From Ceratodon purpureus (taxonomy: Eukaryota > Streptophyta > Bryopsida > Pseudoditrichales > Ditrichaceae), in contig CM026433.1 of the NCBI GenBank assembly GCA_014871385.1, positions 15,069,985 through 15,133,984 of the forward strand: 64,000 bases of DNA. The letters are read 5' to 3'. The notes below the pieces were generated by a model. That model was not told where the DNA came from. It ran no database searches and saw only the letters and a program-made list of their open reading frames with translations. Shown piece by piece: positions 24,133-51,203 of the stretch (positions are counted from its first letter, which is position 1; every line of letters begins with the position of its first letter). A program made the position numbers and the translations under genes.

Positions 24133-25874
24133 TTGAAATGTTGATGTGCTATCAAAGATGAATATTGAAATGATGAATAACAAAAATACTTTTTAGTTCA
24201 ATATTCAAACTGGTTTCTTTGAAGAGAATTATCATATTGTTATAAACTTGGTTTTATGTATTCTATAATGTTAACTGCAATAGCTAAACACCATTAAGTA
24301 TTTTAAAATTCCAATGATGACTTAATGTTTAAAATTTTGTTTTAGTGTCTTATCTTGGTTTGGGGATTATGTAGAGATTCTTCTGGGTCAATTGGACAGC
24401 ACGCACTTCAAAAATTCATATTTTGTTTAAAAAATAAAATTTCATTTCCACTCTCCAATTTTAACATTTGTCTATATGTGGAAATTCAGAAAATATTCAA
24501 CAATGGCAACAAGGCACACCAATCATTATGCCTAACATAGATTGTTTTATCTTGTGCGGATATGTAATTTTTAGATACAGTATTGGAGTCTAGAGAGAAC
24601 TTCCCGTTCAGAAGCCAAAAATGCTGAGACATATAAAATCATTATCATTTTGGGAGAGTACCTTGATGCAATTCTCTTGTGCGAGGTTGTAGAACATTGA
24701 GATTGAAAATACCAAATCTATTCAAAGATACGAAGAAAGTATTCATTAAACATATATCTTGATAATGCATCAGATATACTACTTGAGAAATTCAATTGAG
24801 TGTACAACTAGTTAAGTTGTTTTTCATTGCAATACATAACTTTTTAGTTCATAAAATCAATTGTTTATTATTGTAGTTGACGCAAATAATTGATAAAATT
24901 TGTACAAGTTTTGAAAGATTAGTTAAGGTAAATGCATGAAAAAAAAAATAGTGCATTTAAATGATTTTCTTTCAATTTCAATTTAAATTTGGGACTTGGA
25001 GCATCTTTATTTATAATATACAAGGTAATCACAAATTGCAGTTCATATGATACGAAGTTCAACATCAATTTCAACTTTTATATTGTGAATTTGTAAACTA
25101 CAATAAAAGAAGCAAAAGTAGTATATCGATAGCTTTGAGTCATCAACATATTACATGAATATTTATCTTCACAAACTTATTAATAAAATTTACAATTGAA
25201 CATATTATATTGGTAAGGTATCACGACACACATTGATGATGAAACCTATATTTATATTGCAAAATTGTCACAAAATTTTGGGACCATGAATCCCTAGAAA
25301 TGCAAAGACATAAGTTGTTGGCTTAATGCATTTTTTTCCTACTTGTATATGCTCATACTCATACCTTGAACCCTGAACTTTAGTTCTGACATTTTCCAAC
25401 TTTTCCATTTGTAGGTGAACATTGAGGTCCCACACGCCTTGTTTGGCCCACCCTCACTCCTTATTTCTAAACTCTACATTCTCCATGGTAAGGGCTTGCA
25501 TGCCTAGATTTAAAGTAACTTATAATTAGTTATAGGGATCTCACTTCTCAAAACAACACCCACCCTACAAACGCTTGATGGCCACTCTACTGTCTCTCCT
25601 TTAGAAAATCATCGGAAATTAAAAGCATGTTGGAAATTTGATTTCCTTCCGGGAAGGCCTTCCTCTAACTTTGCAAAGCAATTCAAATCTCTAAAGTTCT
25701 TGTCCCACTCCTAACTGACCACATCTGATATTCAGTCGGGTAAACGACTCACACCCTTACAAGATGTGATGGCGAAGCAGGAATTAAGAGATCTTGTCTT
25801 CGTCTTAATTTGGGGATCCATACAAGCTTCATCAACTGTTATGTTAGACGATGCTCAAGGAGAAGTGGAGGTCG
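24133..25874. other. AT-rich intergenic stretch; first 200 bp duplicated elsewhere
   Basis: Kinase 3' flank and AT-rich DNA up to the left arm of the large inverted repeat. Bases to about 24330 recur almost unchanged, inverted, near 33355-33556. No gene recognised beyond that. Confidence 0.5.
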
Positions 25875-26577
25875 GCTAAGAATCCAACATTCCAATTCAT
25901 CAGCTATCGAGGGGACAGGTTTAAATTGCAGATACATAACTCGTGGGCCTTCCCCAGAGAACCCCATAGCCAGGAAATCAAACGACAAGGAGAAGATGTC
26001 TAACTCCACGGAGCAGCAACTTCGTACACGACTCGCGCTACCTTGGCCATGGCAGGGGCGTATCTTAGACGTACCACATTACGAAAACTACCAGGAGAAG
26101 TCTCACACTCATGGTGCTACTAAGGCATCAGGGAACAAGCATGATCACATCAACAGAAACAAATGCCAACTAGTTGAAAAAAAAACTTTCTGATAAATTA
26201 TGTAAATAAATCAACATCCTACAAGCTGTTTATCGCCCCTCAAACCTGCTTCGTGTTTGCTACCACTGACTACTTATACCTCCTACTGCCAACCTACTGT
26301 ATCTACGAGGCGCTCCGAAGGCGGTAACGAGGTGGCATCACAAAGCCTTAGCAATGCAGTCATCCGGCGCTGCCTACAACCACACTCTAGCACTGAAGTG
26401 GCACTGCTTACTCTAGCACTAAAATTCTGCCAAGAGATCAGCACGTGCCTTGTCAATTGTGTGTACTTGTGGCCAGGACAGCAATAGATTCTGTGACGGA
26501 GTCCAAGGAGATGCGGGTATACAAAGACCAATCCAGTCCAAGCCGGGATGTTGATTCGGCAAAAATAAGCCTCGCAT

Positions 26578-29500
26578 TTAATCGCATTTGATGTTCCTGT
26601 ATATCCGGCGCACGAACAAGGATGAACCTAGGTACCCAACAGCACCTGCAAACACCACAGTCACACCAGTCAGACACTCCACTTCACGGTATGCACGTTC
26701 GCCGGTACCATCAGCATGACCCAGACCGGCCACCAGCCACACGCAGTTCAGTGTAGCCAAATTGATTATGTGCTTGCACTAACTACATAAGTCACCACTT
26801 TGAACGGTGACACACCCAGTGCCTACACGAAACATGTGACTCAATGATGCCTAACGAACGAGCAGAATCAACAAACATCCAAAACAGAATATTTCTACGT
26901 CATGGAGGACTTCCCGAGTTTCACTGCCACACGTCAACTCACCGCAGAAAATTCCAAGACCGATGCAGAACATCAGAGTGTAACCGAAGTAGAAACTGAT
27001 CTGGAAAAACCCCGACATCTTCGTCTTCATGTGATAGTAGTAAATGGAGTACAGGTACACATACAAGGCCGTAGAAGCTGCCGACCAAAACGAAGTCCAT
27101 TGCCAGTGATAGTTCTCCGCATTCAGCAAGAAGTACGTTGCAACGATCGTCACACACACTGTCACGATGGTCAAAATGATGAATACCAGCAGCATGAACC
27201 CATACACGTAGTACACCTGAAACAAAACCCCCACCCAAACTCGTCAGAACCGACAACTTGTATACCTGATGCACGAAACAAAATGAAAACTTAAAAACGA
27301 TGGATGCAGTATAACACACGACATGATTCCGCAGAAAAAGGTGATTGTCATTTTCGCTTTTATCCCAAGTATAAAGGGTAATCAAACACCCACCTTGTAC
27401 TGCCAGAACGACGTGAACACGAAGTACATCTCGATGAAGATACTACCGAACGGCAACAACCCACCCAGTAGTGCAACCACCGACGGTTTCAAGTACCACT
27501 TCTTGTCCGGAATAGGGCGAGGGATGGTCTTCACTCTGCACGGGTTGTCCGGCTGCCCGCTCCAGTTCCGCCCCACCACTGTCCCGAACAAAGCCAGGGG
27601 GAATGAGATGAAAGCCCAAATCACCAACACCACCACCATCGTGCCGAACGGAATAGCCGCCAGAGAATGGTAGTAGATGGCTACAAAGTTCAACATGAAC
27701 CCGATGCCGAAGCACAAGAATGGGAACAACGATGCAGTCAGCAGCATCGACTTCATCCAGTGCTTTCCTGCACAACAATCACAAACCAACAATGAGTATC
27801 ACCTCAAAAACTAAGCGAACGGGAGACTCGACATCAGGTATCCTCCACTTCCAGTTCCTCAGAAGTACAGATGGATACCATCGTGGCGCGAGTAGAACCC
27901 TCCGCTCACGTATCCTGCTATGAAAGATGTCAGCGCGTAGCATACGATGAATGCCGTCACGATAGCTCCACGCCTGCAACCATGCATTCAAGCCTCCATT
28001 AAACAGCCTCGTACTACCACATCTCACAACTGCAATGATGTAGCACACCAGGGCGAGAACCCTACTTCGCACGGCCTCTACTCTTCATTTTCCACGGAAC
28101 TCTTATAAACACCCGCTTCACTAAGACACCCCCCAAAAAGGTCAACAGCTCAGTGCACGTACCCGACGTAGAGCATTCCTACGATAGACAACAGGATCAC
28201 CAACAACACCAGCATCGCCAGCTGGGCACCGGTCCCAATCAATGCAGATAAAAGTACCAGCTGCCGAGGTGCTCGAAACACATCTCCATGGACCAACTTC
28301 CATCCCGACTCTTCACTCACATCCCTCTCCTGCACCACCACACCCACAAATCAGGTCATTCCCGTCACCGACGATCTCAACTTCGACATCGCGCTTCCAA
28401 AGGCCTTTCCGTTTCAGACATAACTGTGAATCTGCACTCACCAAGGATTCCAGATCATCATCCTCGCGTGCGTACTTTGCGTAGTCGTTGCGGAGCGTAC
28501 GCATCAAAATCATCGAAACCAGCCCCGTCAGGAATATCACCATCATGAACGAGTTGAAGATGGAGAACCAGTGAATCTGTCATCACAACGCCCATCCGAA
28601 CCAAACCAACCACAATAGTCAATATTCCAAAACGCCCCCCTCTACAGTAACAATAATGCTTTACAAGACGATTCATATATCCTGTCGAGCCCCCACCAAC
28701 ACCAAGCCAAACCTCATGGCAAAGAACATCAGGCTTGCGTGCTACCCAGCAGTCAAAAGGCCCACGTAAACATCCATTGTCAATGCCAGCCTGCGCATCA
28801 GACTGGCCATACTGGTTCTCATACGCACCTGATGCTCGAAGAATGGGTAGTCCAGATACGCATCAAATCGTCGAATGTACGATGTGTTCGTTTCTTCCCA
28901 GTGTACTGCGTACGTCAGATCGATCTTCTTTCCAGGAGTCAAGGGCTGGAGGTTGTCTTGAGTCAGGTTCACTTGGATGATCTGTCCATACCAACACAAC
29001 CATGCAATCTTAGTCACGCCAACCTATATGCAACCATAAGCATCCCATCAACGGCCTCCAAATTCACAGAACCCTACAGAAGACCGTTCATTCAGCTCAC
29101 AAAACAGTACCTGATCGTTGTTGTACTTGATCACCAAGTCCTTGTGTGTGTATATCATGAACTTAGCATCATCTTCCTTGTCTGAGTGTTGCTCTCCGAC
29201 GAAGCCTATACATATTCATCAGTACGTAAGGCACCATCATTGCTGTTTGCGCCAAGTAATGAGGACCAACAAATGTCAAATAGCTACCATGGAGCAATAC
29301 AAGGGAGAATGCGGACATGACAGTGTGTACTAAGATGTCCGCATGTCTGGCATTCGAAATCGACACTCGTAGACTTTGACACAACATTATCACCGGACCC
29401 CTAGAACGTGTGCCAGAAGGATCAGCAGTTACATACCCCACAGTGGAAGATCGTCTGCAACGGACAGGGGCAAATGCACCAACACACGACACGAATTCCA

Positions 29501-30991
29501 TCGTCAGAAACGTATTCAACGCCATATTTGAAAGACAGCATTCAATCACAGATTCCTCCTATAATTCAGCTCTAAAAAATTGCTCCTATCACCACGTCCC
29601 AAAGCTTCCATCCAACCAACCAAGTTGCTCCTGAACTCACCCATGAAAAACTCAAACCAGTAGATGTTCTTGACAGCGTCTTTGAAAGTTCCAGCTGAAA
29701 TCGCATCCATGTCGAAACTGCAGATCGTTTTCTTCTCCACAGGTGCTGTGTCATACACAAGACGAGTCAGCGACCTCTGGGGAGACGATTTATAAAAGCA
29801 CATGATGACACCCAAGATTCAACTTCCGCTTCCTGAAACTGGACTCCGTGACTCAGAGCGCCCAAGGAAAAACTTAATTGCACGTTCTCAACCATGAAAA
29901 CGGCGACACTTCTTCTATCAAACCTCACTCCATCGACAGTATCTGCGACCACTTACTCTTGAACTTGATCTCAATCTCACTGTCAATCAGCTCATTCCCT
30001 TCCAGAACTTCGCCAAGTCCTCCCCATTTGTGTCGAGCCTTTGAGCCAGCGCCCGGACTGCAGAACGGCAGGCTATAGTAGTTGTACGTCTCTTGAGGAT
30101 TGTTGTAGGGCCCCACCTTGTTTACCCACAGCACCACCTGGTCTCCATTACCATACTGCACATTCCACAGAACAGAGAGTATGCAGTCAGCATTACACCA
30201 CTTCAGTAACGACACAGACCTCAAGCCATCTTTCCAGATGGAACTTAGGAGAACTTGGTGCCACAACTTCAGTCGATTTATTACAACGGAGATACCTCAT
30301 AGTTCTTTTCTCATGCTGACCATGAGCACTCCATCACAAGAAATGTCTGAACTACACCGAAATCAAACCAGGACAAACACCCTTGGGTTTCTACACCCTG
30401 TCTCCAACGAAGCAGTAGCGACAAGAAACAAGATACCAGCTGCAGAAAACAGCTCTGCTAATTTGAAAACACTAAACACCATCAACTAAACCCCGCATTT
30501 CTGAACCCACTATCCCTCCAAGTCATAATGAATTAGGTCACGGCATCACCATCAAATCCAAACAATAAAATGCTCACAAACATCACCACGCTGTTGATTA
30601 CAGCACAACCAACATCAACAACATCAGCTTATCCCAATCATCATTTTCTTTGGATTTATTGCTGACTTAGTTGGTACGACAAGAACATCTTCACTTCACC
30701 CGGAAACTCATCAAAATTACACAGAGTTAACCACAGGCGAGCGATGACTCCATGCCCATGTCTAGAATAAGCTCCAAAACCCCAACCATCACAGAAACCC
30801 TGAAACCCTCCCCCATCAATTACAATCCCAAAGACGAAAAACCAGAGCCATGAGAAACCAAGACCAAGGAGATGAAAATCCGCATGGAGACACGGAAACC
30901 CAAAACGTACCCGGTGGTTATACTCGTCGGCATTACAGAGCTGCAGCAGAACGAGCAGACACGCCACCCCCACCAACCCAACCCTACCCAT
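26578..30991 (-). CDS. TM9SF3: Nonaspanin, TM9SF3-like (left palindrome copy)
   Basis: Transmembrane-9 superfamily proteins reside in Golgi/endosomal membranes and take part in membrane-protein sorting and cell adhesion. Twelve exons (30991-30911, 30155-29957, 29745-29641, 29454-29437, 29205-29111, 28981-28829, 28576-28442, 28329-28163, 27973-27879, 27767-27394, 27216-26943, 26645-26578) join in phase to 587 residues, close to human TM9SF3 (589). A signal peptide ([18 protein letters not shown]) is followed by the lumenal domain ([30 protein letters not shown]), [60 protein letters not shown], and nine membrane spans. It ends [12 protein letters not shown], whose K-x-D is the COPI-binding Golgi-retention motif known from plant EMP12. 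Exon 4 is an 18-nt microexon. Intact; every exon length equals that of the right copy. Confidence 0.94.
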
Positions 30992-31306
30992 CTTCGCCAC
31001 TCTCGAGCTCGATCTCCTCCAAACCAAACTTCGTGAAACGAATCTCCTCCGAACCCACTCTCCTCGCCAGAAACTCCCTCCAACTGCCGCAATCCGCACC
31101 TGCCCTTCCGCAATCCCGATCTCGCAACCCCACAGAAACCAAGCTCCCTCTCTCTCGTTCCAGCTGCGTAGCTCTTCACCCACAGTTCACCGACCCCACT
31201 GCCCTCCACAGCAGATCATCGGCGAAGCGTCGAGCCGCTCATCGCGTGAAAAACTCTCGCAAATCGCAGCTCCGGACTCAGATCTGGAACCCGAAATGCT
31301 CAACCC

Positions 31307-31756
31307 GAACAAACTATTGCCATAGCTTCGCCGGTCACCCGGTTGCCTTTTACGTCGATTTATTTATATTTGACAAGATAGCCGCGGTCGCATAGTGATG
31401 TTGACTCCCGCTCCGGGTGGATATGTTTACAATGGGGCGCAATAGCGTTGGGTTTGCCGGTCGCCGTCTGGTGTAGCTCCTTGTCATTACCGGTGATAGG
31501 CCTTAGTGAAGGTACAGTGACTGTCTGTGGTGGGTGATTTGGTAGGTGACCCGGCGCTGTGTAAATAATTCGTTTTCGAGGCGGACGTGCGTGACCAGAG
31601 TTCGTGGTGCCATAGCCTTGCCGGTCGCCCCGTCGCCGGGGAGGTGGTTTGTGGGTCGGCGTGGGCTATGGCCGGTCGGAATGAGGCGGTGACCTCTTTT
31701 CCCGGTTTTAGTAGTGAAATGTTTTTGTTTTGCGGTTCTACTGAGGGAGTGGGTTT
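31307..31756. repeat. GC-rich block unique to the left arm, with internal direct repeats
   Basis: About 450 bp with no counterpart in the right arm, lying between two matched blocks. It is GC-rich in AT-rich surroundings. GCCATAGCTTCGCCGGTCAC near 31320 recurs in a diverged form (GCCATAGCCTTGCCGGTCGC) near 31611, and inverted fragments (CTATGGCCGGTCGG) occur near 31665. Either an insertion in the left arm or a deletion from the right; being upstream of the gene, it makes the two promoters differ. Confidence 0.6.
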
Positions 31757-31806
31757 GGATTTTCCTTTTTCACCCTCCGTTGGTTTGCAACATAAGTATA
31801 AATATT

Positions 31807-33354
31807 AGTGTTCTATTATGACTAGTAAAAAATTTAGTATATATAGTTAGTTTTAAGATCTTACGACTAATTAATTAAAGAATGCTAAGGTTGAGATTTA
31901 TTAAGCCTAAAGTAGAAAGGGTGAGCTTTAGCAATATGAATCAAAGATGTATAGAAGTCATGGATGATCAATGGCATTGAAGAATAATGTGTGATTTTCA
32001 AAGTACGTATATATATGGTAATAAAATGGATATAATCATGATGTGAAGAATTTATTTTTTATTTTTTATTTCTTTTGGACATCTTTATTTACAAGATTTT
32101 ACCTTTAACTTTATAATCTACTATTTACTATTTTCTTGATGGATACAGAATAAATAAATTTACATTTGATGCAATAAATATATTCCATAGAAAGATTGAA
32201 TGTGTTCTAGAGGGTGTTTACCTTTAAAATTCCTTCACTATGTTTCACCAAAAAAACACTCCAAAAATGATGAATAACTAAAAAATAATTATTTTTTTAA
32301 TTCTAACCATGAGATCTCCAACTATGTTATTGTGTTACATATCTTGATAAAGTTTATCATAATTGACCATAGAGATTAGAATATCATAGCAATTGAAATC
32401 TGAAAACAAACTTTTTTGACATGATTTTTGACTTGGTTAACACACTCTAATTTTGTTTTTCATAGATTTTTTGCATCATGGATTTTGGAGGTTTTAGAGC
32501 ATGACAAAGACAACTAAGTTAGCTAATTGTACAAAAAATTTACACACAAAAGACAAGTGTAGCGTATTGAAAACAATATTTTTATTAAGCTGAATACATA
32601 AGAGTGCTAATTCATATTTCTTCCCTAGAAATTCCATTATTTCATAAAGTTCCAATCCAAACAGTCAAAGTAAAGATTGATGTCCATCCTTTAAATGAAA
32701 AAAGGAAAAAACCCAAAAAAAATTCTAACCTTTATAAAAGAAAGACAAAGTTTTTTCACTACACTATCCAAAACGATGAGTAAACTTTGAACTTTTATAG
32801 AGTGAACATTTTGTACTGAAAGAAGTTTCTTTTCGAAAGATCTTAAAGATGACAACATTAAGTATTTATAGAAATAATCTAAAAGGTGAGATATGTAGTT
32901 GGCATGGCTGCCCAAATTGCCCACTAGATAGAGTATTTCAATTCGAGTACCATAACTATTTATTAAAATATGCAATTGAAAAAAAAAATAGATTCCCTCA
33001 AAGTTCTTGTTAAGGCTTACATATTACACAAAAGAATCTTAAAATAAATATCTAAAATTGACATCACAGGTACTTGCCCAAAATTTTAAGAAATCCATTC
33101 TAGGACAATTGTTCTTTACGAGTTAATGGAGGAAGTAAATCTTTACTGCCATATCTTTGTCATGTGGGCATTAGACTGGGGGTGGATTGAACAGACACTT
33201 AATTCACGTCAGTCTCATCGAAAGACAAAATTTTCTCTTTCCCTTTCTTAATAGAGAAGAGATGTATTATAATGCAAATATTTTAAAACTCATACCTCCT
33301 TGTAGAAGATGATAGAAATATAAATTAAAGTGTGATAAGTCAGTAGAATAAATT
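31807..33354. other. AT-rich spacer DNA, outer part weakly paired with the right arm
   Basis: To about 32225 this is weakly similar, inverted, to 41245-41535; for instance AGATTGAATGTGTTCTAGAG near 32195 pairs with a close copy near 41260. The remainder is AT-rich with no recognised gene. Confidence 0.45.
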
Positions 33355-33970
33355 TTTAAAACATAAAGTCATCATTGGAATTTTAAAATACTTAATGGTG
33401 TTTACCTTTTGCAGTTAACATTATAGAATACATAAATCCAAGTTTATAACAATATGATAATTCTCTTCAAAGAAACCAATTTGAATATTGAACCAAAAAG
33501 TATTTTTGTTATTCATCATTTCAATATTCATCTTTGATAGCACATCAACATTTCAATTATGGATATACATCTTCACTTTCATACAACCTAGAATGAAGTT
33601 TCTTCACTATCTCTTGAAAACTAGGCCTTAGTAATGGATCATCTTTCCAACAACTAACAATGATCTCTTTAATGAACGGATCTAAACCACTTGGTAATTC
33701 TGGTCGCCTTCCACTAAGCACAAGATCATACTTATTAAAAGACTGATCACCAAATGGAATGCACCCTGTTACAATTTCATAAGATGTCATTCCGTAACAA
33801 TATACATCTGCTTGAGGTGTAAATTCTACCCAACTCTCTTTCATCTTCCAACAAAGAAAGCAACACATTTGGAGCTTTGAGATCCTTGTGCAAGATGCCA
33901 TACTCCTCTTGCAACTGACCCATATCTTATGCAATTTATGCATCAACCACTTAGTCTGCACTGCATTGAA
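33355..33970 (-). pseudogene. Truncated inverted copy of the DFE kinase
   Basis: This copies 23600-24330 in inverted orientation: the last half of the kinase ORF and about 200 bp of its 3' flank. The N-terminal half, glycine loop and ATP Lys are absent. The catalytic loop region is frameshifted, and about 125 bp covering the DFE and APE motifs are deleted at a three-base GTA microhomology (counterpart of 23738-23862). The C-lobe reading (ADVYCYGM to the end) and the 3' flank are nearly identical to the source, so the duplication is recent. Its mirror axis with the parent gene is near 28.8 kb, different from the axis of the nonaspanin palindrome (about 36.4 kb), so it arose by a separate event. 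Confidence 0.9.
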
Positions 33971-35220
33971 ACACTACAAGGAAAACAAGGGTAGAACCAA
34001 GAGATAATCAACTGAATTATGTGTAGCAAAAGAGGGGAATAGTTTTTGAGATGTCGCGTCCTGTAAGCAAGAGACACCGCAAGAGAATTGACTAACACTT
34101 CTTGTTTATTAGAGGATCTCGAAGTGTAGGACGTTAATGTGTGTGGACTGAACGTGAGATGTCAAGGATCCAGTCGTTTGTGGATGGAGAGTGTGCAAAC
34201 AACCTCGATTTTGCCACATGGTGACCGACATTAGAATTTAGACTTGCGGTCAATACCCAGTTGATGAACAGAGAGCCAAACTCGTAATGGTGTGAAAAAT
34301 GATGACATTCATACACTTGAAATAAGTCCATTATGGAGTCCGTGACATGCACGTGGACAAGGATTGTCGGAACTTAGCATTTCAAAAGGAAGTAATACAA
34401 AATGCCGAGTATATTAAAAATAGTGTTACAGTAGAAAACAATGTAAAGGACCCCTGTACACGCTTTGACCTAAAGGTCATCAACACTTCTTAACTTGTCT
34501 ACAAGCCTCCTGGAATAAAATCGACATACACAAACTGTACACCCTGGTTTGATCTGCTTTGTAGTCTTCGGTAAAGCAGCATAGAGGATGCAGCTGGACT
34601 ATATAGCATATATGGACTAATTGTCACGTTACAATAAATACCGAGGTAGAGATTAAGGATACTGTCACTACGTGCATACCCAATATGATTGAAAATGTAA
34701 CGGTATACCTCTAGATGTTCCAAAAAAAACAAAGAAAAACATAAGGAAATCTAGAGGATTCTAGTTACCATATAGGTAACTTCGGTGAGTCTTCATCGGA
34801 ACATTCAAGTTGTGCAACCTAAGATTTGTGGATTCCACTAACAGAGAACTTCATGCCTGCTCGTATTGAGACACTCATACAAAGCAATCGAACGTGTACA
34901 TTCCATTGAGAGCACACACACGAAATGACACCAATCCCGGAGCTGGAAAAAAAAAATGATGACAAACGTCAGTGCTTGTGACCAAACAAAACTTCCAGAA
35001 ATGGAAGTTCACAATATGCATTGCAGAACTTATTACCTATGTGAAATTCAAGTCCGGTATTTAGAACCACTTCTTTGCTTGAAATCAAACTAGTCAACAT
35101 GCATCATTGTAGGAGGACATAATCACAGCGTGAAAAGATTACTCAAATGTAAATTCAGAATGCAGTGTTGAGATGGCAAATGCATATAAAATACTTAAGA
35201 GCTGGGGAATTGTGTGCAAA
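33971..35220. other. Spacer DNA without recognised gene
   Basis: About 1.2 kb of mixed composition. Short ORFs on both strands have no recognisable family features. Confidence 0.45.
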
Positions 35221-35950
35221 TTAATCAGATTCTGATGACTCCTCAAGTGCTTTGTCAAAGACCTCTGGTATTTCTGGTTCTATATTAGCAAACATGTTAT
35301 CTACCTGGAGAACCCTTCCTCCTGCCGATGGAGGCGCCGGTTCCTCAAATATATTGTCCAGTGCCCTTAAGCCTTCATACTCTTCATCTCATCTCGTCTG
35401 GAAAAAGGACCTTCTTCTTTCTCTACACTTGAAGCGGCTACTCTTTTCTTGCGAGGTTTCGTCCTGATAACAACTTTTCAACCAGGAGCTTCTGGACAGT
35501 CAGAGAAAAGTACTTGTTCAATGTGCAACGAGAGAGCAAACGAATCTGCTCCAAACTCTATCATCCTGGTGAAGTTGGCAACAGTGAAACCCCATCTATC
35601 TTTTTTTACTGTAGCATTTGCTCCTCTATAATTAGCCTTCATCCATGATGCCACTAGAATAATTTGTTTAAAAATTCAATAATCAAGGTCAATTATTTCA
35701 TCTAAGGTGCCAACGTACTCCACTAGTATCATCACTACATTTCTGTCTCCCATTCCTGATTGACATGCTCGTATAAACATTCCAGCAATACCAGAGTCAC
35801 ATGACGTCCACTTGCCTCTGCACTTTTCACGCGAAGATGGTAGCCATAGGCAGACATGCTTTGGTTTTTCTTGGAGGGAAATTTCGAAATCGCTTCAAGC
35901 ATATCCTCAACTTCTGTCCCAGAACAAACCTCCTCTTTTACAGTCACTCA
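35221..35950 (-). mobile_element. CACTA (En/Spm) transposon remnant, DUF4216 coding region
   Basis: Reading the minus strand in pieces gives AYGYHLRVKSAEASGRHV, DSGIAGMFIRACQSGM, VEYVGTLDEIIDLDY, KDRWGFTVANFTRMIEFGAD, SFALSLHIEQVLFSDCPEAP and VVIRTKPRKKR. This order and content match the DUF4216 domain found at the end of the CACTA transposase-associated protein. A Glu/Asp-rich tail follows, ending in EVFDKALEESSESD and TAA at 35221. At least two in-frame stops and two or more frameshifts interrupt it, so it is dead. No terminal CACTA repeats were found nearby. It lies in the palindrome spacer. Confidence 0.75.
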
Positions 35951-36309
35951 AAGCCAATCCAAGAAAGGCGGGTGCTCCGCAACTGCAGTTGGAAAATTAA
36001 GAGCTTTTGATCCTCTTCGGCCAGCATGGCGCGACCTCCACTGTTCACGCTGAAGAGTACGACTCTCAACAAGAGCACTATAAGGTGTGCATTCAAAGAA
36101 ATAGTGTAGGCCGAGCTAAGCAAAAGTGACTTTATAATGTTTCTCTGATAACCATATTTAGGCGATATAACATAATTAATATAACGCAATTTATATACAT
36201 GACATGAGCCCTGTAATGAAGTCTGCCAATCTAAGCTTCTAGAACTCAGAAGAGAGCTGAATTAGCAAGCATTCATAATTCTAAATTATTAATTATCAAT
36301 AGTAGAGTC

Positions 36310-37260
36310 AATAATAACTAAGTACTTTGTTGAATCACTCACAGACCATAAGTTTTGGCAATTTTTACTGTTTTGGCAATTTTTTACTGTTTTTGCATTG
36401 TTTTACTTTAGAGGCACTGTTTTTATTGTTTAGGCACTATTTTAATTGTTTAGACACTGTTCTTCTGTCTAATGTGATACAGTATCACCACTGCTCTTGC
36501 TATTGCTACTTAATTTTGTTTATTTGCTCACTGTGATTTGGTTTGCTCCAAGTCACTAATCTGTTTTATTTTTAATCTCATTTTTTATTTATTCGCTCAC
36601 TGTGATTTGGTTTGCTGACTAGTTCTGCTATGAATTATTTGTTCTCAGTTTCAAGTTTTAGTTTATTTGTTTACTTTGAATTATTTGTTTTCAATTTTGG
36701 TTTATTTGTTTGTTTCAAGTTTGCAGATTTTTCAAACAGTCTATTTGCTCTACTGATTTGTTTCAAGTTTATATTCTGAAGTATTTTTATTTATTTATCT
36801 GCTCTAAAGTTTTTCCAAGATTGTTCGTTGATTTACTAGCTTTGGTTTTTCCATCAGCTTTGGTTTTACCATGGGGTGATACCAAGATTCTGTTTTGGCA
36901 TTTGGCATTTGGCATTTTACTGTTTTGGTCGTGTTTTTACAGTTTAAGTGTTTTAGTAGTTTAAGTGCGCTGTATTTACTATTTTTTATTATTTGAATTT
37001 TTATTACTTTTTTGTAATGATTTATTTCTTGTTTGTTTAATTATATTTTTTCATATTTTGCATAAGTATTTTAATCATTGGCTAAAATGTTCAATCTAAT
37101 TTTATTTTCTTTCTAGTGTAATTGTTTTAATTGTTTTTGATGTTTAGGTTATTTTCATATGCTTTGTTATTTGAGTGTTTTTGAATAATGGATTGAATTT
37201 AGTTTAAGTGCATTGATTTTGTTGCTTACATATATATTTCATGGTTTTTATATATTTTTT
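36310..37260. repeat. T-rich low-complexity region with short direct repeats
   Basis: Nearly 1 kb in which the plus strand is dominated by T with scattered GTTT and CACTG motifs. A 27-bp unit containing CTCACTGTGATTTGGTTTGC occurs at 36521-36547 and again, with one mismatch, at 36590-36616. Near 36356-36450 short units of the type TTTTGGCAATTTTTACTG and TTTAGGCACTGTT are repeated imperfectly. No gene. Confidence 0.55.
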
Positions 37261-40200
37261 TATTGGTGGAACAGAGTGCACAGAAAGTGAACTTTACATG
37301 CGGCCTTTATAGTGTCGCTTGAATTCTGTGAAGCAAGTTGAAGCCCACAATTTGGGAAAGTTACATTTAGGAGTTCTTGCCGCAATGAGTCTACCTTTGG
37401 TCCACCTAACTTTGGCATATGTACGAGGAAACTGCAATGTGGAAGAGTAGGATGTGAAATCCTCACCCTTAGAAATTTTGATGAGAGAAAAAAATAGTCA
37501 TAGTTATTAATAGATATCCTAAAGAGGGAGCAAATATGCCTAACTGTACCAAATGTGTAGTAAAGGTTTCCAAAATCTTTGACTGTAAAGAAATGTCAAA
37601 AGAGTTTAATTTTGAAGAAGCTTTGACTAATTCTGTGGAATTAGCAACTTCTTGTCTTATTTTAGATAGAGAGGTAATTATGGGAGTTGTAGTTTTGAGT
37701 GGACTTTCAGAAGATGAAGCTACATTGTTAGAAAGAAGGGCATTAAGATTATGGGGAAGTGGGCTTATGTCGAAAAATCTCCAGATAAACTATCTAGGTT
37801 GATAGCAATGTTCGAATGCCGCTTTGCAAGGAAATTTGGAAGGTATTTTTTTTTTCCTTCAATTTTTATGCTATGGTGGTTTTGTTTTGAATGTATTGTT
37901 TTCACCATGTTGTTTTAATCTTTGTGATTTTATTATGTATTAATTTTTGTATTTGTTTTTAGGGTATGTACATCCGAAGGTGAAGCGACAGAAAATTGTA
38001 GAATACAAAGAGGAGTTGAAGATTACAGATGATTATGAGTTAGATCTTGCAGCTGATGGTTTCGTCAAGGATCTCTGAAAGCATTTTTTGAAGTATTTTT
38101 CAAATACTTACAAAGGCCTATGCGACTTATATAAGAATCTCACTGGACTTAGTAAGATGAGTGATAGCACGTTTTCAGATATAAAAATTACTGAAAACTT
38201 TGCTAGTTTGCTACATAATGACAAAGATTACGGATTTGATTTTATTGGGAGGTTTCTTCGCAAAATCCAATATAGAAGTCTTGATCTTGATCTATATACT
38301 TGAGTAGAATTCTTGATGTAGATTTTTCTAGGATGTTGTGTATGGTCTGATGAACAATTTGGTATATGTTTTGGTATATGGTTTGATATACAATTCTATA
38401 TGCATTTGAAATCAACTTCAGATCTATTGAAAACAATATGTAACATGTTATATTATAATATGTACAAAGTTGATATACTCCATATCCATATTGATACATA
38501 TAATGTATATTATTACTGATATATGCCTATTGTATAAATATACTTAAATAAAATAGTATTGTAGTAATTTTATTTTTCTTTTGCAGGTTTTATTAATCAC
38601 ATTTGACTAATTTTTTAACAAAAAATGTGGACTTACAAAGCCAATAATTTGTTGTATTCCGGTAAGTGCCAAAGTGAAAGTTGATTGGATATCCAACATT
38701 TGCTTATTGAATTTCTAATTGATGTCATTGGCATAGTAATGAGTTTCTTTTACCATATCAAGTATTTTTTCGTCACTACACAACTCTACAAGGCTTTTTT
38801 CTTCAATTAAATTCTCTATAGTGTCAAAGCCTAGCCTAAAATTGTGCCAAGGGTATTGTTTGGATTCTACTAAGTATATCAATAACAATGAAATGGCTAA
38901 GGGCTGAATTATCTAGTGTCAAAATTTTGTCCCTTGACCTTTTATTGCTGTTTCTTCTCTATACCACAAAATTTTCTTTAGCTTTGTTCGCGAGAAGATG
39001 TTTCAGGCTTTGCGTGAGGGAGTCTACCTCCATGGTATCTTCTTCATGCACAAAGTAGGCCAAAAAGGCGACGAAGGTGGCCATCCGTGCTTTTCTTTGC
39101 AATAGGTGTTGGTGATATTGACGATTTCATTATTAATATAGTATTGGACACCACCTCTTCTCTAGTCTTCTCCTTCCAACACAACGAAAGGTTCATATTG
39201 CTATAGTGTAACATAGACACAATTAAGTGCTCAGCTTGCTCATTGTATAATTTGGGCACTTCAAGAATCCTTATTTTTTTATCTGCGTTTTTAAGTAAGG
39301 ACCAGGTACAATTTTTCTTGGATTTTAATTTCATACTACTATGTTGTAATATTTTGGTTTTGTTTGAATTTGTATTTAGTTTTCTTGTAAAGAAAGTTGC
39401 ATAGTAGTAAAAGATTTTACAAAAACGATTTGGTATAGTTACTTTTTGAGATTTTATGTTGGTATTGTTTTTACATACAGTTCTATCGCAAATATAATTG
39501 TGTTGGGGGTTTGTCAGATACTTAGCTCAGAGGTGAGGTTTGGGTGTGGCCTTGAGCAGAGTTTAGTCTCTGTTCTAAATTTTGCCATCCTCCAGCTTAC
39601 AGTCCTCACTTTCTACCTTGGATTTTGCTTCGCTAGGTATATTTCTACACGCAAGGACAGAATGCTTGCATAGATTGTTGGGTTGCTTCTACCTTGGACA
39701 GATAGACGGTACCACATTTTGTTGTTAAGAGACTTCAATGATGCAAAAACTTCTTCTCAAAATAAGTGAATGAAGGATTTGTTGCTTTCAGATTGAATAG
39801 TAGGCTATTGTTTGCATTGAGCTTGCCATTCTTGTTGCATCAAAGCAACATTTGCTAGGGAAGTAGGATGTTGTGTTGGAGTTTGAGGGTATAGGTTTTA
39901 GTAAACTTACCATAGGCTGTGCATAGTTGACATTCTTTGATGCACATTTTGCAACAACATTTTTACTTGGTTGTTGTAGGCCTAGATGCGAGCTCAAACA
40001 ACAACAAAAATAACGGGTTTTTCTCATAGTTTGATAACAATTTGAATACAGTGTTGGGCTTGCACTTTGCGGTTGGAGGATGTAGTAGGATGTCTAAGGC
40101 TTGAATTTAAGGGGCAGTTTGAAGCTAAGTTACATCCTAAAGATGAGATCTACAGCCTCTATAAGGATTTACTTTTGTTGATGGTGTGGTGTAGTGACAT

Positions 40201-41244
40201 TGTCGTTGATTTTGTTGACTTGGCTGTTATTTTGTGTTATCTTCTTTGAGTTTGCATTAAAGTAGCTACCGCTCGACTTGGCTACTATAGGGCTAAATAC
40301 ATGTTTGAGCAACAACAACGATAGCCAAACCTTCGTGTAGTCTAATGATAGCTTTAATTTGAAGTAGGACTGAAGCTTTCCATAAGGAGTTGTCAAAGGA
40401 CGTCTAAGGCGGGTGCGGCTAGAGGTTGGAGCGTTGTTGAAAATAGGTGGTGAATTCTCCAGCTTCTGTTTGCTACCCAAATGACAGTGTTGTGGTGTTG
40501 ATGGCAAATATTAATACTAAGGATAGTAATTTTGGCTTAAAAGTAAGATCCAAAAAATTTGGATTTAGGCCTATAACTTTGAGTGTCGAGAGATAGTTGC
40601 TATTGGGTTCAATGTCTAGCGAGGTCCTTTAATTTGTGGTTTTGTAAGTCCTTTGATTTGAGGCTGTAGATTGGCTTCGTGTATCGCAACGTTCTATAGG
40701 TGTATTCCACCTTAGTAGAATGGTAGCTTCCTAAATCTACTAATTAAAAGAAGTGTTCTACAAAGGCTAGAAATGTTAAGAATGGACATGGTTATGAGCC
40801 CGGAGGCTTTGTTTTTTTCATGTACTGTATCGTGCAACATAGTGCAGGTTGTTAGTTTGAGACTTCACAAGTGTTGTGTGAGAATGTTACATTCTCTACC
40901 AAGCGGCTTCTAACAACTATATCCAGGATCCACGGCATGGAGGAAATAGAGTAGAGAACTCAAACACATGCTTTGCTCTTCAAAAGACACTTTTCAATCT
41001 TTATTCCTTCACACACATGAATTGTGCCTCAATAGATCCTATTACTACGCTACAACATTCTTCCTCAAAAAAAACAGTTCTTTCCACACATTCACTCTAC
41101 CATGAGGGATAAGGTATGGAAGAGACCACAGAATCCAACATACACTCTTCCTATTCACCTATCTTTTTAACAACTAACACCTTCGCTAGTCCCTCATCAC
41201 AATTTTGCAGTGCTCATCTACTCAACATGACATCCAGAAGAGCT
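37261..41244. other. Spacer DNA, probably old repeat debris, no gene supported
   Basis: Several ORFs of 60-96 codons occur (for example 37536-37802 plus, 39044-39334 minus), none with a family signature I recognise. The composition is mixed and the region reads like decayed transposon sequence, but no diagnostic domain is visible. Confidence 0.4.
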
Positions 41245-44200
41245 TAACACCCTCTAAAACACATTCAATCTCTCTATAAATTACATTCATTGCATCAAAT
41301 GTATCTTAACTATATTCTAAATCCATAACAAAAATAGTTAAAAATAGATTTAAAATTTCAAGAAACTAATCATACTTGAAAAGCCAAAAACAACAATCCT
41401 TACATCAAGGCTCAAAGTAAGACCATCCCCATTCTCTCACCATAAAAAAACAAACTTAAAAATTGACATCAACTCCTAAGTGCCATTGATAATCCATAAT
41501 TTGTACATCTTCCCATTTTAGTACACACACATGCGAAACTATTTATATTTTATATTGCAAACTAACGGAGGGTGAAAAAGGAAGTGCTCGTGCAAGACCA
41601 TCTGGTTTCTGGGTTGAGCATTTCGGGTTCCAGATCTGAGTCCGGAGCTGCGATTTGCGAGAGTTTTTCACGCGATGAGCGGCTCGACGCTTCGCCGATG
41701 ATCTGCTGTGGAGGGCAGTGGGGTCGGTGAACTGTGGGTGAAGAGCTACGCAGCTGGAACGAGAGAGAGGGAGCTTGGTTTCTGTGGGGTTGCGAGATCG
41801 GGATTGCGGAAGGGCAGGTGCGGATTGCGGCAGTTGGAGGGAGTTTCTGGCGAGGAGAGTGGGTTCGGAGGAGATTCGTTTCACGAAGTTTGGTTTGGAG
41901 GAGATCGAGCTCGAGAGTGGCGAAGATGGGTAGGGTTGGGTTGGTGGGGGTGGCGTGTCTGCTCGTTCTGCTGCAGCTCTGTAATGCCGACGAGTATAAC
42001 CACCGGGTACGTTTTGGGTTTCCGTGTCTCCATGCGGATTTTCATCTCCTTGGTCTTGGTTTCTCATGGCTCTGGTTTTTCGTCTTTGGGATTGTAATTG
42101 ATGGGGGAGGGTTTCAGGGTTTCTGTGATGGTTGGGGTTTTGGAGCTTATTCTAGACATGGGCATGGAGTCATCGCTCGCCTGTGGTTAACTCTGTGTAA
42201 TTTTGATGAGTTTCCGGGTGAAGTGAAGATGTTCTTGTCGTACCAACTAAGTCAGCAATAAATCCAAAGAAAATGATGATTGGGATAAGCTGATGTTGTT
42301 GATGTTGGTTGTGCTGTAATCAACAGCGTGGTGATGTTTGTGAGCATTTTATTGTTTGGATTTGATGGTGATGCCGTGACCTAATTCATTATGACTTCAC
42401 TTAAGGGAAAGTGGGTTCAGAAATGCGGGGTTTAGTTGATGGTGTTTAGTGTTTTCAAATTAGCAGAGCTGTTTTCTGCAGCTGGTCTCTTGTTTCTTGT
42501 CGCAACGGCTTTGTTGGAAAGACAGTGTAGAAACCCAAGGGTGTTTGTCCTGGTTTGATTTTATGCGTTTTTTGTGTAGTTGAAACATTTCTTGAGATGG
42601 ATTGTTCATGGTCAGCACGGGAAAAGAATTTTGCGGTCTTTCCGTTGTAGTTAATCGACTCAAGCTGTGGGACCAAGTTCTCCTAAGTTCCATCTGGAAA
42701 GATGACTTGAGGTCTGTGTCGTTACTGAAGTGGTGTAATGCTGACTGCATACTCTCTGTTCTGTGGAATGTGCAGTATGGTAATGGAGACCAGGTGGTGC
42801 TGTGGGTAAACAAGGTGGGGCCCTACAACAATCCTCAAGAGACGTACAACTACTATAGCCTGCCGTTCTGCAGTCCGGGCGCTGGCTCAAAGGCTCGACA
42901 CAAATGGGGAGGACTTGGCGAAGTTCTGGAAGGGAATGAGCTGATTGACAGTGAGATTGAGATCAAGTTCAAGAGTAAGTGGTCGCAGATATTGTCGATG
43001 GAGTGAGGTTTGATTGTGGAAGTATCGTCGTTTGCTGGTTGATAACGTGCAATTAAGTTTTTCCTTGTGCGCTCTGAGTCACGAAGTCCAGTGTCAGGAA
43101 GCGGAAGTTGAATCTTGGGTGTCATCATGTGCTTTTATAATTTGTCTCCCCAGAGGTCGCTGACCCGTCTTGTGTATGACACAGCGCCTGTGGAGAAGAA
43201 AACGATCTGCAGTTTCGACATGGATGCGATTTCAGCTGGAACTTTCAAAGACGCTGTCAAGAACATTTACTGGTTTGAGTTTTTCATGGGTGAGTTCAGG
43301 AGCAACTTGGTTGGTTGGATGGAAGCTTTGGGACGTGGTGATAGGAGCAATTTTTTAGAGCTGAATTATAGGACGAATTTGTGATTGAATGCTGTCTTTG
43401 AAAGATGGGGTTGACTAAGTTTCTGACGATTGAATATGTGTTGTGTGTTGGTGCATTTGCCCCTGTCCGTTGCAGACGATCTTCCACTGTGGGGTATGTA
43501 ACTGCTGATCCTTTTGGCACACGTTCTAGGGGTCCGGTGATAATGTTGTGTCAAAGTCTACGAGTGTCGATTTCGAATGCCAGACATGCGGACATCTTAG
43601 TACACACTGTCATGTCCGCATTGTCCTGTGTATTGCTCCATGGTAGCTATTTGACATTTTTGGTCCTTATTACTTGGCGTAAACAGCAATGATGGTGCCT
43701 TACGTACTGATGAATATGTATAGGCTTCGTCGGAGAGCAACACTCAGACAAGGAAGATGATGCTAAGTTCATGATATACACACACAAGGACTTGGTGATC
43801 AAGTACAACAACGATCAGGTACTGTTTTGTGAGCTGAATGAACGGTCTTCTGTAGGGTTCTGTGAATTTGGAGGCCGTTGATGGGATGCTTATGGTTGCA
43901 TATAGGTTGGCGTGACTAAGATTGCATGGTTGTGTTGGTATGGACAGATCATCCAAGTGAACCTGACTCAAGACAACCTCCAGCCCTTGACTCCTGGAAA
44001 GAAGATCGATCTGACGTACGCAGTACACTGGGAAGAAACGAACACATCGTACATTCGACGATTTGATGCGTATCTGGACTACCCATTCTTCGAGCATCAG
44101 GTGCGTATGAGAACCAGTATGGCCAGTCTGATGCGCAGGCTGGCATTGACAATGGATGTTTACGTGGGCCTTTTGACTGCTGGGTAGCACGCAAGCCTGA

Positions 44201-47053
44201 TGTTCTTTGCCATGAGGTTTGGCTTGGTGTTGGTGGGGGCTCGACAGGATATATGAATCGTCTTGTAAAGCATTATTGTTACTGTAGAGGGGGGCGTTTT
44301 GGAATATTGACTATTGTGGTTGGTTTGGTTCGGATGGGCGTTGTGATGACAGATTCACTGGTTCTCCATCTTCAACTCGTTCATGATGGTGATATTCCTG
44401 ACGGGGCTGGTTTCGATGATTTTGATGCGTACGCTCCGCAACGACTACGCAAAGTACGCACGCGAGGATGATGATCTGGAATCCTTGGTGAGTGCAGATT
44501 CACAGTTATGTCTGAAACGGAAAGGCCTTTGGAAGCGCGATGTCGAAGTTGAGATCGTCGGTGACGGGAATGACCTGATTTGTGGGTGTGGTGGTGCAGG
44601 AGAGGGATGTGAGTGAAGAGTCGGGATGGAAGTTGGTCCATGGAGATGTGTTTCGAGCACCTCGGCAGCTGGTACTTTTATCTGCATTGATTGGGACCGG
44701 TGCCCAGCTGGCGATGCTGGTGTTGTTGGTGATCCTGTTGTCTATCGTAGGAATGCTCTACGTCGGGTACGTGCACTGAGCTGTTGACCTTTTTGGGGGG
44801 TGTCTTAGTGAAGCGGGTGTTTATAAGAGTTCCGTGGAAAATGAAGAGTAGAGGCCGTGCGAAGTAGGGTTCTCGCCCTGGTGTGCTACATCATTGCAGT
44901 TGTGAGATGTGGTAGTACGAGGCTGTTTAATGGAGGCTTGAATGCATGGTTGCAGGCGTGGAGCTATCGTGACGGCATTCATCGTATGCTACGCGCTGAC
45001 ATCTTTCATAGCAGGATACGTGAGCGGAGGGTTCTACTCGCGCCACGATGGTATCCATCTGTACTTCTGAGGAACTGGAAGTGGAGGATACCTGATGTCG
45101 AGTCTCCCGTTCGCTTAGTTTTTGAGGTGATACTCATTGTTGGTTTGTGATTGTTGTGCAGGAAAGCACTGGATGAAGTCGATGCTGCTGACTGCATCGT
45201 TGTTCCCATTCTTGTGCTTCGGCATCGGGTTCATGTTGAACTTTGTAGCCATCTACTACCATTCTCTGGCGGCTATTCCGTTCGGCACGATGGTGGTGGT
45301 GTTGGTGATTTGGGCTTTCATCTCATTCCCCCTGGCTTTGTTCGGGACAGTGGTGGGGCGGAACTGGAGCGGGCAGCCCGACAACCCGTGCAGAGTGAAG
45401 ACCATCCCTCGCCCTATTCCGGACAAGAAGTGGTACTTGAAACCGTCGGTGGTTGCACTACTGGGTGGGTTGTTGCCGTTCGGTAGTATCTTCATCGAGA
45501 TGTACTTCGTGTTCACGTCGTTCTGGCAGTACAAGGTGGGTGGTTCAGGACCCTTTATACTCGGGAAAGGAGCGATAGTGAGAATCACCTTTTCTCTGTG
45601 GAATCGTGGCGTGTATTTTACTGCAATCGTCGGTTTGGTTTTTATTTTCGTGTTGCGATCCAGGTATACAAGTTGTCTGTTCTGACGAGTTTGGGTGGGG
45701 GTTTTGTTGCAGGTGTACTACGTGTATGGGTTCATGCTGCTGGTATTCATCATTTTGACCATCGTGACAGTGTGTGTGACGATCGTTGCAACGTACTTCT
45801 TGCTGAATGCGGAGAACTATCACTGGCAATGGACTTCGTTTTGGTCGGCAGCTTCTACGGCCTTGTATGTGTACCTGTACTCCATTTACTACTATCACAT
45901 GAAGACGAAGATGTCGGGGTTTTTCCAGATCAGTTTCTACTTCGGTTACACTCTGATGTTCTGCATCGGTCTTGGAATTTTCTGCGGTGAGTCGACTTGT
46001 GGCTGGTTGAAACTCGGGAAGTCCTCCTTGACGTAGAAATATTCTGTTTTGGATGTGTGTTGATTCTGCTCGTTTGTTGGGCATCATTGGGTCACATGTT
46101 TCTTGTAGGGTCACTGTTTGTCACCGTTCAATGTGGTGACTTATGTAAGTAGTGCACAGAACCAATCTGGCTACACTGAACTGCGTGTGGGTGGCGACCG
46201 GCGTGGGTCATGGTAATGGTACGGGCGATTGTGCATACCGTGAAGTGGAGTGTCTGACTGGTGTGACTGTGGTGTTTGCAGGTGCTGTTGGGTACCTAGG
46301 TTCATCCTTGTTCGTGCGCCGGATATACAGGAACATCAAATGCGATTAAATGCGAGGCTTATTTTTGCCGAATCAACATCCCGGCTTGGACTGGATTGGT
46401 CTTTGTATACCCGCATCTCCTTGGACTCCGTCACAGAATCTATTGCTGTCCTGGCCACAAGTACACACAATTGACAAGGCACGTGCTGATCTCTTGGCAG
46501 AATTTTAGTGCTAGAGTAAGCAGTGCCACTTCAGTGCTAGAGTGTGGTTGTAGGCAGCGCCGGATGACTGCATTGCTAAGGCTTTGTGATGCCACCTCGT
46601 TACCGCCTTCGGAGCGCCTCGTAGATACAGTAGGTTGGCAGTAGGAGGTATAAGTAGTCAGTGGTAGCAAACACCAAGCAGGTTTGAGGAGCGATAAACA
46701 GCTTGTAGGATGTTGATTTATTTACATAATTTATCAGAAAGTTTTTTTTTCATCTAGATGGCATTTGTTTCTGTTGATGTGATCATGCTTGTTCCCTGAT
46801 GCTTTAGTAGCACCATGAGTGCGAGACTTCTCCTGGTAGTTTTCGTAATGTGGTACGTCCAAGACACGCCATTTCCATGGCAAAGGTAGCGCGAGTAGTG
46901 TACGAAGTTGCTGCTCCGTGGAGTTAGACATCTTCTCCTTGCCGTTTGACTTCCTGGCTATGGGGTTCTCTGGGGAAGTCCCACGAATGAATATCTGCAA
47001 TTTAAACCTGTCCCCTTAATAGCTGATGAATTGGAATGTTGGATTCTCGGCCG
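41245..47053. repeat. Right arm of large inverted repeat (palindrome)
   Basis: Reverse complement of 25875-32225 (see left arm). The core 41611-47053 is close to collinear with 31306-25875. Stretches showing no difference include 41708-42261 (with 31209-30656), about 43744-45209 (with 29185-27720) and 46250-46644 (with 26677-26283). Intron 10 (45536-45712) and parts of introns 1 and 4 differ clearly. Confidence 0.9.
41926..46349 (+). CDS. TM9SF3: Nonaspanin, TM9SF3-like (right palindrome copy)
   Basis: Mirror copy of the gene at 26578-30991. Exons: 41926-42006, 42776-42974, 43185-43289, 43476-43493, 43724-43818, 43948-44100, 44353-44487, 44600-44766, 44956-45050, 45162-45535, 45713-45986 and 46282-46349; total 1764 nt, 587 residues. 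All splice borders are GT-AG and all phases fit. I found no amino-acid difference from the left copy; the few exon differences noticed are silent. For exon 3, the strong acceptor CTCCCCAG (ending 43153) would throw the frame and hit a stop after eight codons. The acceptor GACACAG ending 43184 restores [12 protein letters not shown], which matches the family in length, so I chose it. Signal peptide, nine spans and C-terminal K-x-D as in the left copy. Upstream sequence differs because the block at 31307-31756 has no counterpart here. Confidence 0.94.
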
Positions 47054-47483
47054 ATTGTTGAAATTCAGCGAAGCATGATTGTGCTATGTATTTGAATTAT
47101 TTTATAAAGTTTTGCATGTGTAGATAAACAAAGCGAGCTTCAAAGCGAATGAAATTAAGAGTATAGAAATAGAATATACAGATTATAAGATGGAATATAA
47201 AGGTGAAGAAATCAAGTGAAAATGGAAAGAAATTATTGTAAATGATTATAACATTTATAAATTGAATAATAAGTGCCTTGATTTCATATGAATGGAGTAA
47301 CAACCAAATAAATTGCATACATCATTTGTTATCAGTGGATATCATGTAAATTTTTTTAGTTTATTTCCATTCTCATTTCATTTTATGTATATTGTGAGCC
47401 ACCTCCGGGAGGGGCTCACGCGATGTGAGGCATCCCGCCGGTATGGGGTAGGACGTAGCCCGACCCGTCTGTAAGGGGTGCCT
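47054..47483. other. AT-rich flank, then short GC-rich stem sequence
   Basis: AT-rich DNA to about 47395, then a GC-rich segment at 47400-47480 including the foldback GAGCCACCTCCGGGAGGGGCTC. GGGGCTCACGCGATGTGAGG here is matched in inverted, diverged form by CTTACATCGCCTGAGCCCC at 47769-47788, so the element that follows may have longer, interrupted ends. Confidence 0.45.
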
Positions 47484-51054: not shown

Positions 51055-51203
51055 ACTAGTGTTGGACTGTTATGGCATCTTCTACAGTGAAATCTTGGAC
51101 AGTGGTTCATTCTAGATACCCGTGGACCTCAAACGGGTATTTAGAAAGAACCACTGTCCAAGATTTCACTGTAGAAAGATGCCATAACAGTCCAACACTG
51201 GTA
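51055..51203. repeat. Near-perfect long hairpin (about 68-bp arms, about 11-nt loop)
   Basis: The left arm begins TACTAGTGTTGGACTGTTAT and ends ATACCCGT at 51123; the right arm begins ACGGGTAT and ends CCAACACTGGTA at 51203. I count about four mismatches and one single-base bulge. The transcript of either strand would fold into a stem longer and more perfect than most conserved plant miRNA precursors. It may be a young miRNA or siRNA locus or a small foldback element. No ORF. Confidence 0.75.

What the first reader, a model, noticed from the sequence alone, without database searches (positions are those of the whole stretch)
25875..47053. Large palindrome with two complete, head-to-head nonaspanin genes
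Two inverted arms of about 5.4 kb (weak pairing extends this to about 6 kb), separated by roughly 10 kb, each carry a full 12-exon TM9SF3-like gene with identical exon lengths and, as far as I can read, identical proteins. The layout resembles the ampliconic palindromes of sex chromosomes and other low-recombination regions, where paired copies preserve each other. In a haploid-dominant plant this would be notable. A misassembly would rarely give arms that differ in scattered places, so a real structure is favoured.
Basis: partly seen in the sequence, partly recalled or inferred. Interest (0 to 1): 0.75.

Follow-up and report, generated by a model that had tools for sequence, protein, structure and literature searches.

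The report
Mirror-image duplicated moss housekeeping gene
On an ordinary (non-sex) moss chromosome, a gene for a Golgi-type membrane protein is duplicated as a mirror-image pair whose copies look as if they have been partly copied over each other; this is real, but mirror-image gene pairs are common in this genome and it is not a sex-chromosome structure.

Summary
The palindrome is real. Arms 25872-31309 and 41607-47054 are 96.8% identical over 5.46 kb, with a 10.3-kb spacer. Each carries an intact 12-exon nonaspanin (EMP70/TM9SF3-type) gene; the CDSs differ at 3 synonymous sites and the 587-aa proteins are identical. The protein is Ceratodon purpureus M758_12G182400, and its longest listed contig has exactly the length of the window's contig (16,459,275 bp). 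The window is therefore, by inference, on chromosome 12, an autosome; the sex-chromosome-sized contig is another one (110.5 Mb). The sex-chromosome reading fails.

The arms are a mosaic. A 1,698-bp stretch with five whole introns has no difference, while introns outside it differ by 7.3%. Beyond the identical inner edge, residual homology falls to 69-91%. [quoted passage not shown]

It is not unusual here. Within 344 kb there are at least five more inverted gene pairs. In four gene families sampled genome-wide, 18 of 38 neighbouring same-family pairs (<=30 kb) are inverted; a coarse same-score proxy gave no sign that inverted pairs are more homogenised than direct ones. No reads and no second strain could be examined.

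The parts
25872..31309 (-). left arm of the palindrome; gene transcribed right to left
   Evidence: self-BLAST 96.8% to 47054-41607
41607..47054 (+). right arm of the palindrome
26578..30991 (-). nonaspanin (EMP70) gene copy A, 12 exons, start codon to stop codon
   Evidence: spliced model, ends carried over from copy B through difference-free stretches of the arm alignment; EMP70 Pfam match 592.5 bits for the shared protein
41926..46349 (+). nonaspanin (EMP70) gene copy B, 12 exons, start codon to stop codon; translation identical to P0001
31310..41606 (.). spacer, AT-rich for most of its length; longest stop-to-stop frame 160 aa (frames not searched for domains)
43681..45378 (+). 1,698-bp stretch without a difference from the left arm (27551-29248), spanning exons 5-9 and introns 5-9 plus parts of intron 4 and exon 10
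41611..42397 (+). 787-bp inner stretch without a difference (left arm 30520-31306): 5' flank, exon 1, part of intron 1
45543..45709 (+). span of the differences in intron 10, the most diverged intron (34 substitutions in 178 columns)
31762..32223 (.). decayed inward extension of the palindrome, pairs with 41241-41583 at 69-91%
41241..41583 (.). partner of the decayed inward extension
33334..33971 (-). inverted partial copy, with an internal deletion, of the kinase gene end at 23592-24354; judged a separate event from the palindrome
22690..24132 (+). protein-kinase reading frame left of the palindrome, related to the fragment in the spacer

Best explanation
An inverted duplication copied a complete nonaspanin gene with its proximal flanks on an autosome of Ceratodon purpureus, leaving two divergently transcribed copies whose start codons are about 11 kb apart. 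The event is old: two introns and the ends of the palindrome inside the spacer have diverged by 10-30%. [quoted passage not shown] Shown here: the structure, intact genes, mosaic identity, contig. Inferred: the chromosome's autosomal status, that conversion (not assembly) made the mosaic, that both copies are expressed, and that the pair is kept for gene dosage.
For: Two intact genes for the same protein. Mosaic: 726 trimmed intron sites in a row without difference against 124 differing of 1,697 intron sites outside; so long a run in 0 of 2,000 permutations of the differences. Abrupt step from 100% identity to 69-91% residual homology at the inner edge. A similar mosaic in a neighbouring inverted pair, the QWRF gene: 2,575 bp with 1 difference, then homologous pieces at 72-84% on the 3' side; patchy also in a CCR4-type pair, where patches at 97-99% sit among sequence near 40%. 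Contig length and locus tag point to chromosome 12. Literature passage: tandemly arrayed Physcomitrella genes are highly similar, which suggests gene conversion (PMC3045890).
Against: No outgroup or second strain was available, so direction and timing of conversion are unproven. No reads were examined. A same-score proxy in four families gave no sign that inverted pairs are more homogenised than direct ones (9 of 18 against 9 of 20). The identical stretch was picked out after seeing the data.
Confidence: 0.78

Rival explanations
1. Recent inverted duplication with uneven mutation and purifying selection only, no gene conversion.
For: All three exonic differences are silent and exons differ far less than introns.
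Against: Five complete introns and 315 bp of 5' flank carry no difference while two introns of the same gene reach 10 and 19%; selection on the protein does not explain that. Residual homology at 69-91% next to a 100% identical edge.
Confidence: 0.12
2. Assembly artefact: one copy placed twice, or reads from two similar loci merged.
For: No reads or second assembly were inspected; near-identical stretches are where assemblers and polishing can merge copies.
Against: 127 intron substitutions and 24 gapped intron columns between the arms, unrelated outer flanks and decayed homology beyond the arms are not what a duplicated contig gives; similar pairs recur.
Confidence: 0.05
3. Sex-chromosome type ampliconic palindrome maintained because recombination with a partner is absent.
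For: Inverted arms with a conversion-like mosaic, as in the willow W palindromes (PMC7023750; abstract and sections 13 and 27 read).
Against: Contig C13, 16.46 Mb, matched to a chromosome-12 style locus tag; the 110.5-Mb contig is C6. Inverted pairs also occur on several other contigs of autosome size.
Confidence: 0.02
4. Exons are homogenised by an RNA or cDNA template in addition to DNA-level conversion.
For: Outside the identical stretch silent exon sites differ at 3 of about 196 against 124 of 1,697 intron sites (Fisher p 0.0008); exon 11 is free of differences between introns at 19% and 10%; in the CCR4-type pair an open-reading-frame patch is 97-99% identical while the sequence next to it hardly aligns (exons not modelled there). 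A passage on Physcomitrella discusses cDNA replacement of genomic copies as a route of intron loss (PMC3729371).
Against: The largest identical stretch includes introns, so DNA-level conversion suffices for it; heterology in introns would itself confine conversion to exons; silent sites may be constrained; the stretch was chosen post hoc.
Confidence: 0.06

Closest known systems
Tandemly arrayed gene pairs of mosses kept similar by gene conversion (Physcomitrella)
   Same: Neighbouring copies of one gene, unusually similar, in a haploid-dominant moss; conversion suggested as cause (passage in PMC3045890, citing Lang 2008, which I did not read)
   Different: Here the copies are inverted and about 10 kb apart, and the mosaic of identical and diverged introns is laid out in one pair; whether the Physcomitrella pairs are inverted I did not find stated
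Palindromes of the willow W chromosome (PMC7023750; abstract and sections 13 and 27 read)
   Same: Inverted arms with stretches free of arm-to-arm differences
   Different: Two palindromes spanning 200 kb in a sex-determination region, several genes, four arms with 20-kb conserved stretches; here one gene, 5.4-kb arms, autosome-sized contig
Mammalian Y and X palindromes (search listing with starts of abstracts only)
   Same: Inverted arms, gene conversion
   Different: Arm identity greater than 99% there; 96.8% here, and not on a sex chromosome
Nonaspanin / TM9SF (EMP70) family, PF02990
   Same: Full-length EMP70 match; identical to an annotated Ceratodon protein and mostly 75-83% identical to the land-plant relatives listed
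   Different: Nothing seen in the protein; only its duplicated, inverted arrangement

Membership tests
Nonaspanin / EMP70 (PF02990) | match to the EMP70 profile above cut-off over its full length | tested here: met
   592.5 bits (cut-off 27), profile 1-517 of 517
Nonaspanin / EMP70 (PF02990) | Golgi/endosomal location and trafficking role | not testable with these tools
   recalled for the family, no expression or localisation data here
Sex-chromosome ampliconic palindrome | lies in a sex-linked, non-recombining region | tested here: not met
   contig length equals that listed for the contig of M758_12G182400; the sex-chromosome-sized contig is another one; linkage and recombination themselves were not measured
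Sex-chromosome ampliconic palindrome | arm identity greater than 99% (as for mammalian sex-chromosome palindromes, PMC8981503, abstract start in the listing) | tested here: not met
   96.8% over 5.46 kb
Sex-chromosome ampliconic palindrome | arm-to-arm gene conversion | tested here: inconclusive
   mosaic identity strongly suggests it but no outgroup or second strain
Inverted local gene duplicate under concerted evolution | two intact inverted neighbouring copies | tested here: met
Inverted local gene duplicate under concerted evolution | paralogues more similar to each other within a species than to orthologues in another | not tested
   no second Ceratodon or close moss genome was available for DNA comparison

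The most novel reading that the evidence does not exclude
Autosomes of this moss hold a genome-wide population of palindromic gene pairs, old duplications whose gene bodies are repeatedly overwritten by conversion, often confined to exons, so that a mainly haploid plant keeps a built-in repair template for housekeeping genes (nonaspanin, ribosomal L14, ASF1, CCR4-type, QWRF, light-harvesting and HSP70 genes).
Probability: 0.2. Interest if true: 0.65.

Novelty: new member of a known kind. Interest (0 to 1): 0.35.

Why it matters
It moves the finding from sex-chromosome biology to duplicate-gene evolution in a haploid-dominant plant. The recurrence of inverted pairs, one nearby with 2.6 kb almost free of differences beside homologous pieces at 72-84%, means that gene conversion in moss autosomes could be measured directly by comparing the two sequenced strains.

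Tried and rejected
Sex-chromosome reading: rejected by contig assignment. Origin of the kinase fragment in the spacer as part of the same duplication: rejected, because in an inverted duplication of the kinase-plus-nonaspanin block the kinase copy would lie outside the right arm, not in the spacer. Multi-copy mobile element as carrier of the arms: no sign, on limited evidence; a 1-kb query from the 3' part of the left arm found only the two arms. The EMP70 family search lists nine other loci (C1, C4 three times, C8 twice, C9, C11, C13 at 10.16 Mb), whose DNA similarity to the arms was not measured; a search with the whole arm did not complete. A dispersed repeat at 32224-33126 lies in the spacer. 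Non-coding RNA in the window: none at Rfam gathering cut-off. Inverted pairs more homogenised than direct ones: not seen with a coarse proxy (same rounded bit score: inverted 9 of 18, direct 9 of 20). Excess of inverted over direct pairs: not seen (18 inverted, 20 direct). For that tally I gave the script 85 of 85 light-harvesting rows, all the HSP70 and actin rows I had, but only 11 of the 40 EMP70 rows (one per locus). Of six control families chosen beforehand (note), three were answered (PF00504, PF00012, PF00022); PF00067 and PF00118 were asked and not answered, PF00227 was never sent; EMP70 was added as the family of the finding and includes the window's own pair. Papers: the Ceratodon genome paper and the Physcomitrella chromosome-scale paper were not held; two searches on inverted or head-to-head duplicates returned nothing; passages of the Sphagnum genome paper (PMC9946827) hold neither 'palindrom' nor 'gene conversion'.

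Full report
What is there. The window contains one long palindrome. Arms 25872-31309 and 41607-47054 align in inverted orientation at 96.8% over about 5.46 kb with a 10.3-kb spacer. Each arm holds a 12-exon gene with identical exon lengths, read outwards from the spacer (head to head). Arm B's spliced CDS is 1,764 bp including the stop and translates exactly into P0001, 587 aa, annotated in Ceratodon purpureus as M758_12G182400, an EMP70 (PF02990) protein. The arms differ at 3 of 1,764 CDS positions, all third positions without amino-acid change, so both proteins are the same.

Where it is. The window is C13:15069985-15133984 of a 362.5-Mb assembly. C13 is 16,459,275 bp long, exactly the longest contig listed for P0001, whose locus tag contains 12G. 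Contig C6 is 110.5 Mb; the other eleven of C1-C12 are 16.7-29.0 Mb. I infer that C13 is chromosome 12, an autosome, and C6 the sex chromosome; the expected size of the latter is recalled, since the genome paper was not held. [quoted passage not shown] which of them this is was not determined.

How the arms differ. Introns total 2,667 columns with 127 substitutions and 24 gapped columns; exons 1,764 with 3 substitutions. The differences are not spread evenly. From 43681 to 45378 (arm B) there are none, across exons 5-9 and introns 5-9; 41611-42397, including 315 bp of 5' flank, has none either. Introns 10 and 11 differ by 19% and 10%. Leaving 10 bases at each splice end aside, introns outside the long identical stretch differ at 124 of 1,697 sites and inside it at 0 of 726; 0 of 2,000 permutations gave as long a run. 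Beyond the inner ends, 31762-32223 still pairs with 41583-41241 at 69-91%, the longer piece with 131 bits against a maximum of 36.8 in 100 shuffles of two-base blocks. So an older, larger palindrome steps abruptly from about 70-90% to 100% identity. That is what patchy gene conversion on an old duplication gives; uniform ageing or selection on the protein alone does not. Silent exon sites outside the stretch differ at 3 of about 196 (Fisher p = 0.0008 against introns), which may reflect conversion confined by intron divergence, constraint, or something odder; the stretch was chosen after seeing the data.

Neighbourhood. In 344 kb around the window further inverted pairs of genes lie to the right, in window coordinates: ASF1 (from 61.7 and to 71.2 kb, about 80%), ribosomal L14 (74.1-74.6 and 78.8-79.4 kb; 529 of 540 positions equal), an MLKL-N-like kinase gene (108.0-109.6 and 139.6-141.3 kb, 86-92%), a CCR4-type gene (146-151 and 166-172 kb, pieces at 70-94%) and a QWRF gene (181-186 and 193-199 kb). 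In the QWRF pair 2,575 bp differ at one position; homologous pieces on its 3' side are at 72-84%, and on the other side similarity fades within a few hundred bases. The 140 kb left of the window show only direct local pairs (<=30 kb apart, >=150 bp, E <= 1e-20). Names rest on Pfam matches for ASF1, L14e and QWRF; the MLKL_N match is below its curated cut-off; 'CCR4-type' is my reading of a MYND-like zinc finger plus an endonuclease/exonuclease/phosphatase domain. None of these neighbours was given a full gene model.

Genome-wide sample. Neighbouring same-family loci within 30 kb, counted from hit tables: EMP70 2 inverted, 1 direct; light-harvesting 12 and 15; HSP70 4 and 3; actin 0 and 1. In all, 18 of 38 are inverted (17 of 37 without the window's own pair). 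Weak partial hits are included, hits of one gene were merged by distance, and the tool calls its counts for large families lower bounds. Two light-harvesting cases on C4 are exact mirrors by coordinates: a two-genes-per-arm palindrome at 2.597-2.631 Mb, and a pair 78 kb apart at 5.11 and 5.19 Mb that lies outside the 30-kb rule. By the same-bit-score proxy 9 of 18 inverted and 9 of 20 direct pairs agree, so nothing here says that inversion itself promotes homogenisation. On C6, the presumed sex chromosome, the light-harvesting search gave 3 hits, far apart, and the comparison of a C6 region was not possible.

The spacer. Its longest stop-to-stop frame is 160 aa (not searched for domains). It holds a dispersed repeat (32224-33126, also elsewhere in the 344 kb) and a deleted inverted fragment of the kinase gene that stands left of the palindrome; the other relatives of that kinase end are mostly at 67-75% identity, short hits up to 88%. 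The fragment's position in the spacer suggests a separate event.

Mechanism. Most likely: inverted duplication of the whole gene, long divergence, then repeated ectopic conversion between the arms, with both copies under selection. Structure, intact frames, contig and mosaic are shown. Conversion is strongly inferred. Expression, dosage and the repair pathway are assumed. A published passage reports that tandemly arrayed Physcomitrella genes are highly similar and may undergo conversion (PMC3045890), so the kind is known; the willow W palindromes (PMC7023750, abstract and two sections read) are the closest plant palindromes I found but are larger and sex-linked. The listings of searches showed no paper on inverted gene pairs in moss autosomes; they cover open-licence papers only.

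Noticed in passing
window 33334-33971 and 23592-24354: Inverted, internally deleted copy of a kinase gene's 3' part sits in the spacer; identical over a few hundred bases in the middle.
   Followed up: partly
C13, window coordinates about 181000-199000 (outside the window): QWRF-family gene pair, inverted: 2,575 bp with one difference, with homologous pieces at 72-84% on one side; a sharper conversion-like mosaic than the finding itself.
   Followed up: partly
G000:C4:2597460-2630518: Two light-harvesting genes per arm in an exact coordinate mirror, spacer 26 kb; same family also an exact mirror at 5.11/5.19 Mb on C4.
   Followed up: partly
G000:C3:23533004-23556596 and G000:C1:15988592-16031778: HSP70 genes as inverted pairs with the same domain score, 20 and 40 kb apart.
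   Followed up: no
G000:C4:6101647-6115534: A second head-to-head inverted EMP70 pair (each matched in one open frame) with a third copy 17 kb further.
   Followed up: no
window 51054-51203: Short 150-bp self-complementary stretch (91%), possibly a small inverted-repeat element.
   Followed up: no
window 9520-11842: Two neighbouring minus-strand reading frames (529 and 198 aa), rich in N, D and K; nature unknown.
   Followed up: no
window 32224-33126 and 47484-47771: Dispersed repeats, one inside the spacer and one just outside the right arm, with other copies within 344 kb.
   Followed up: no
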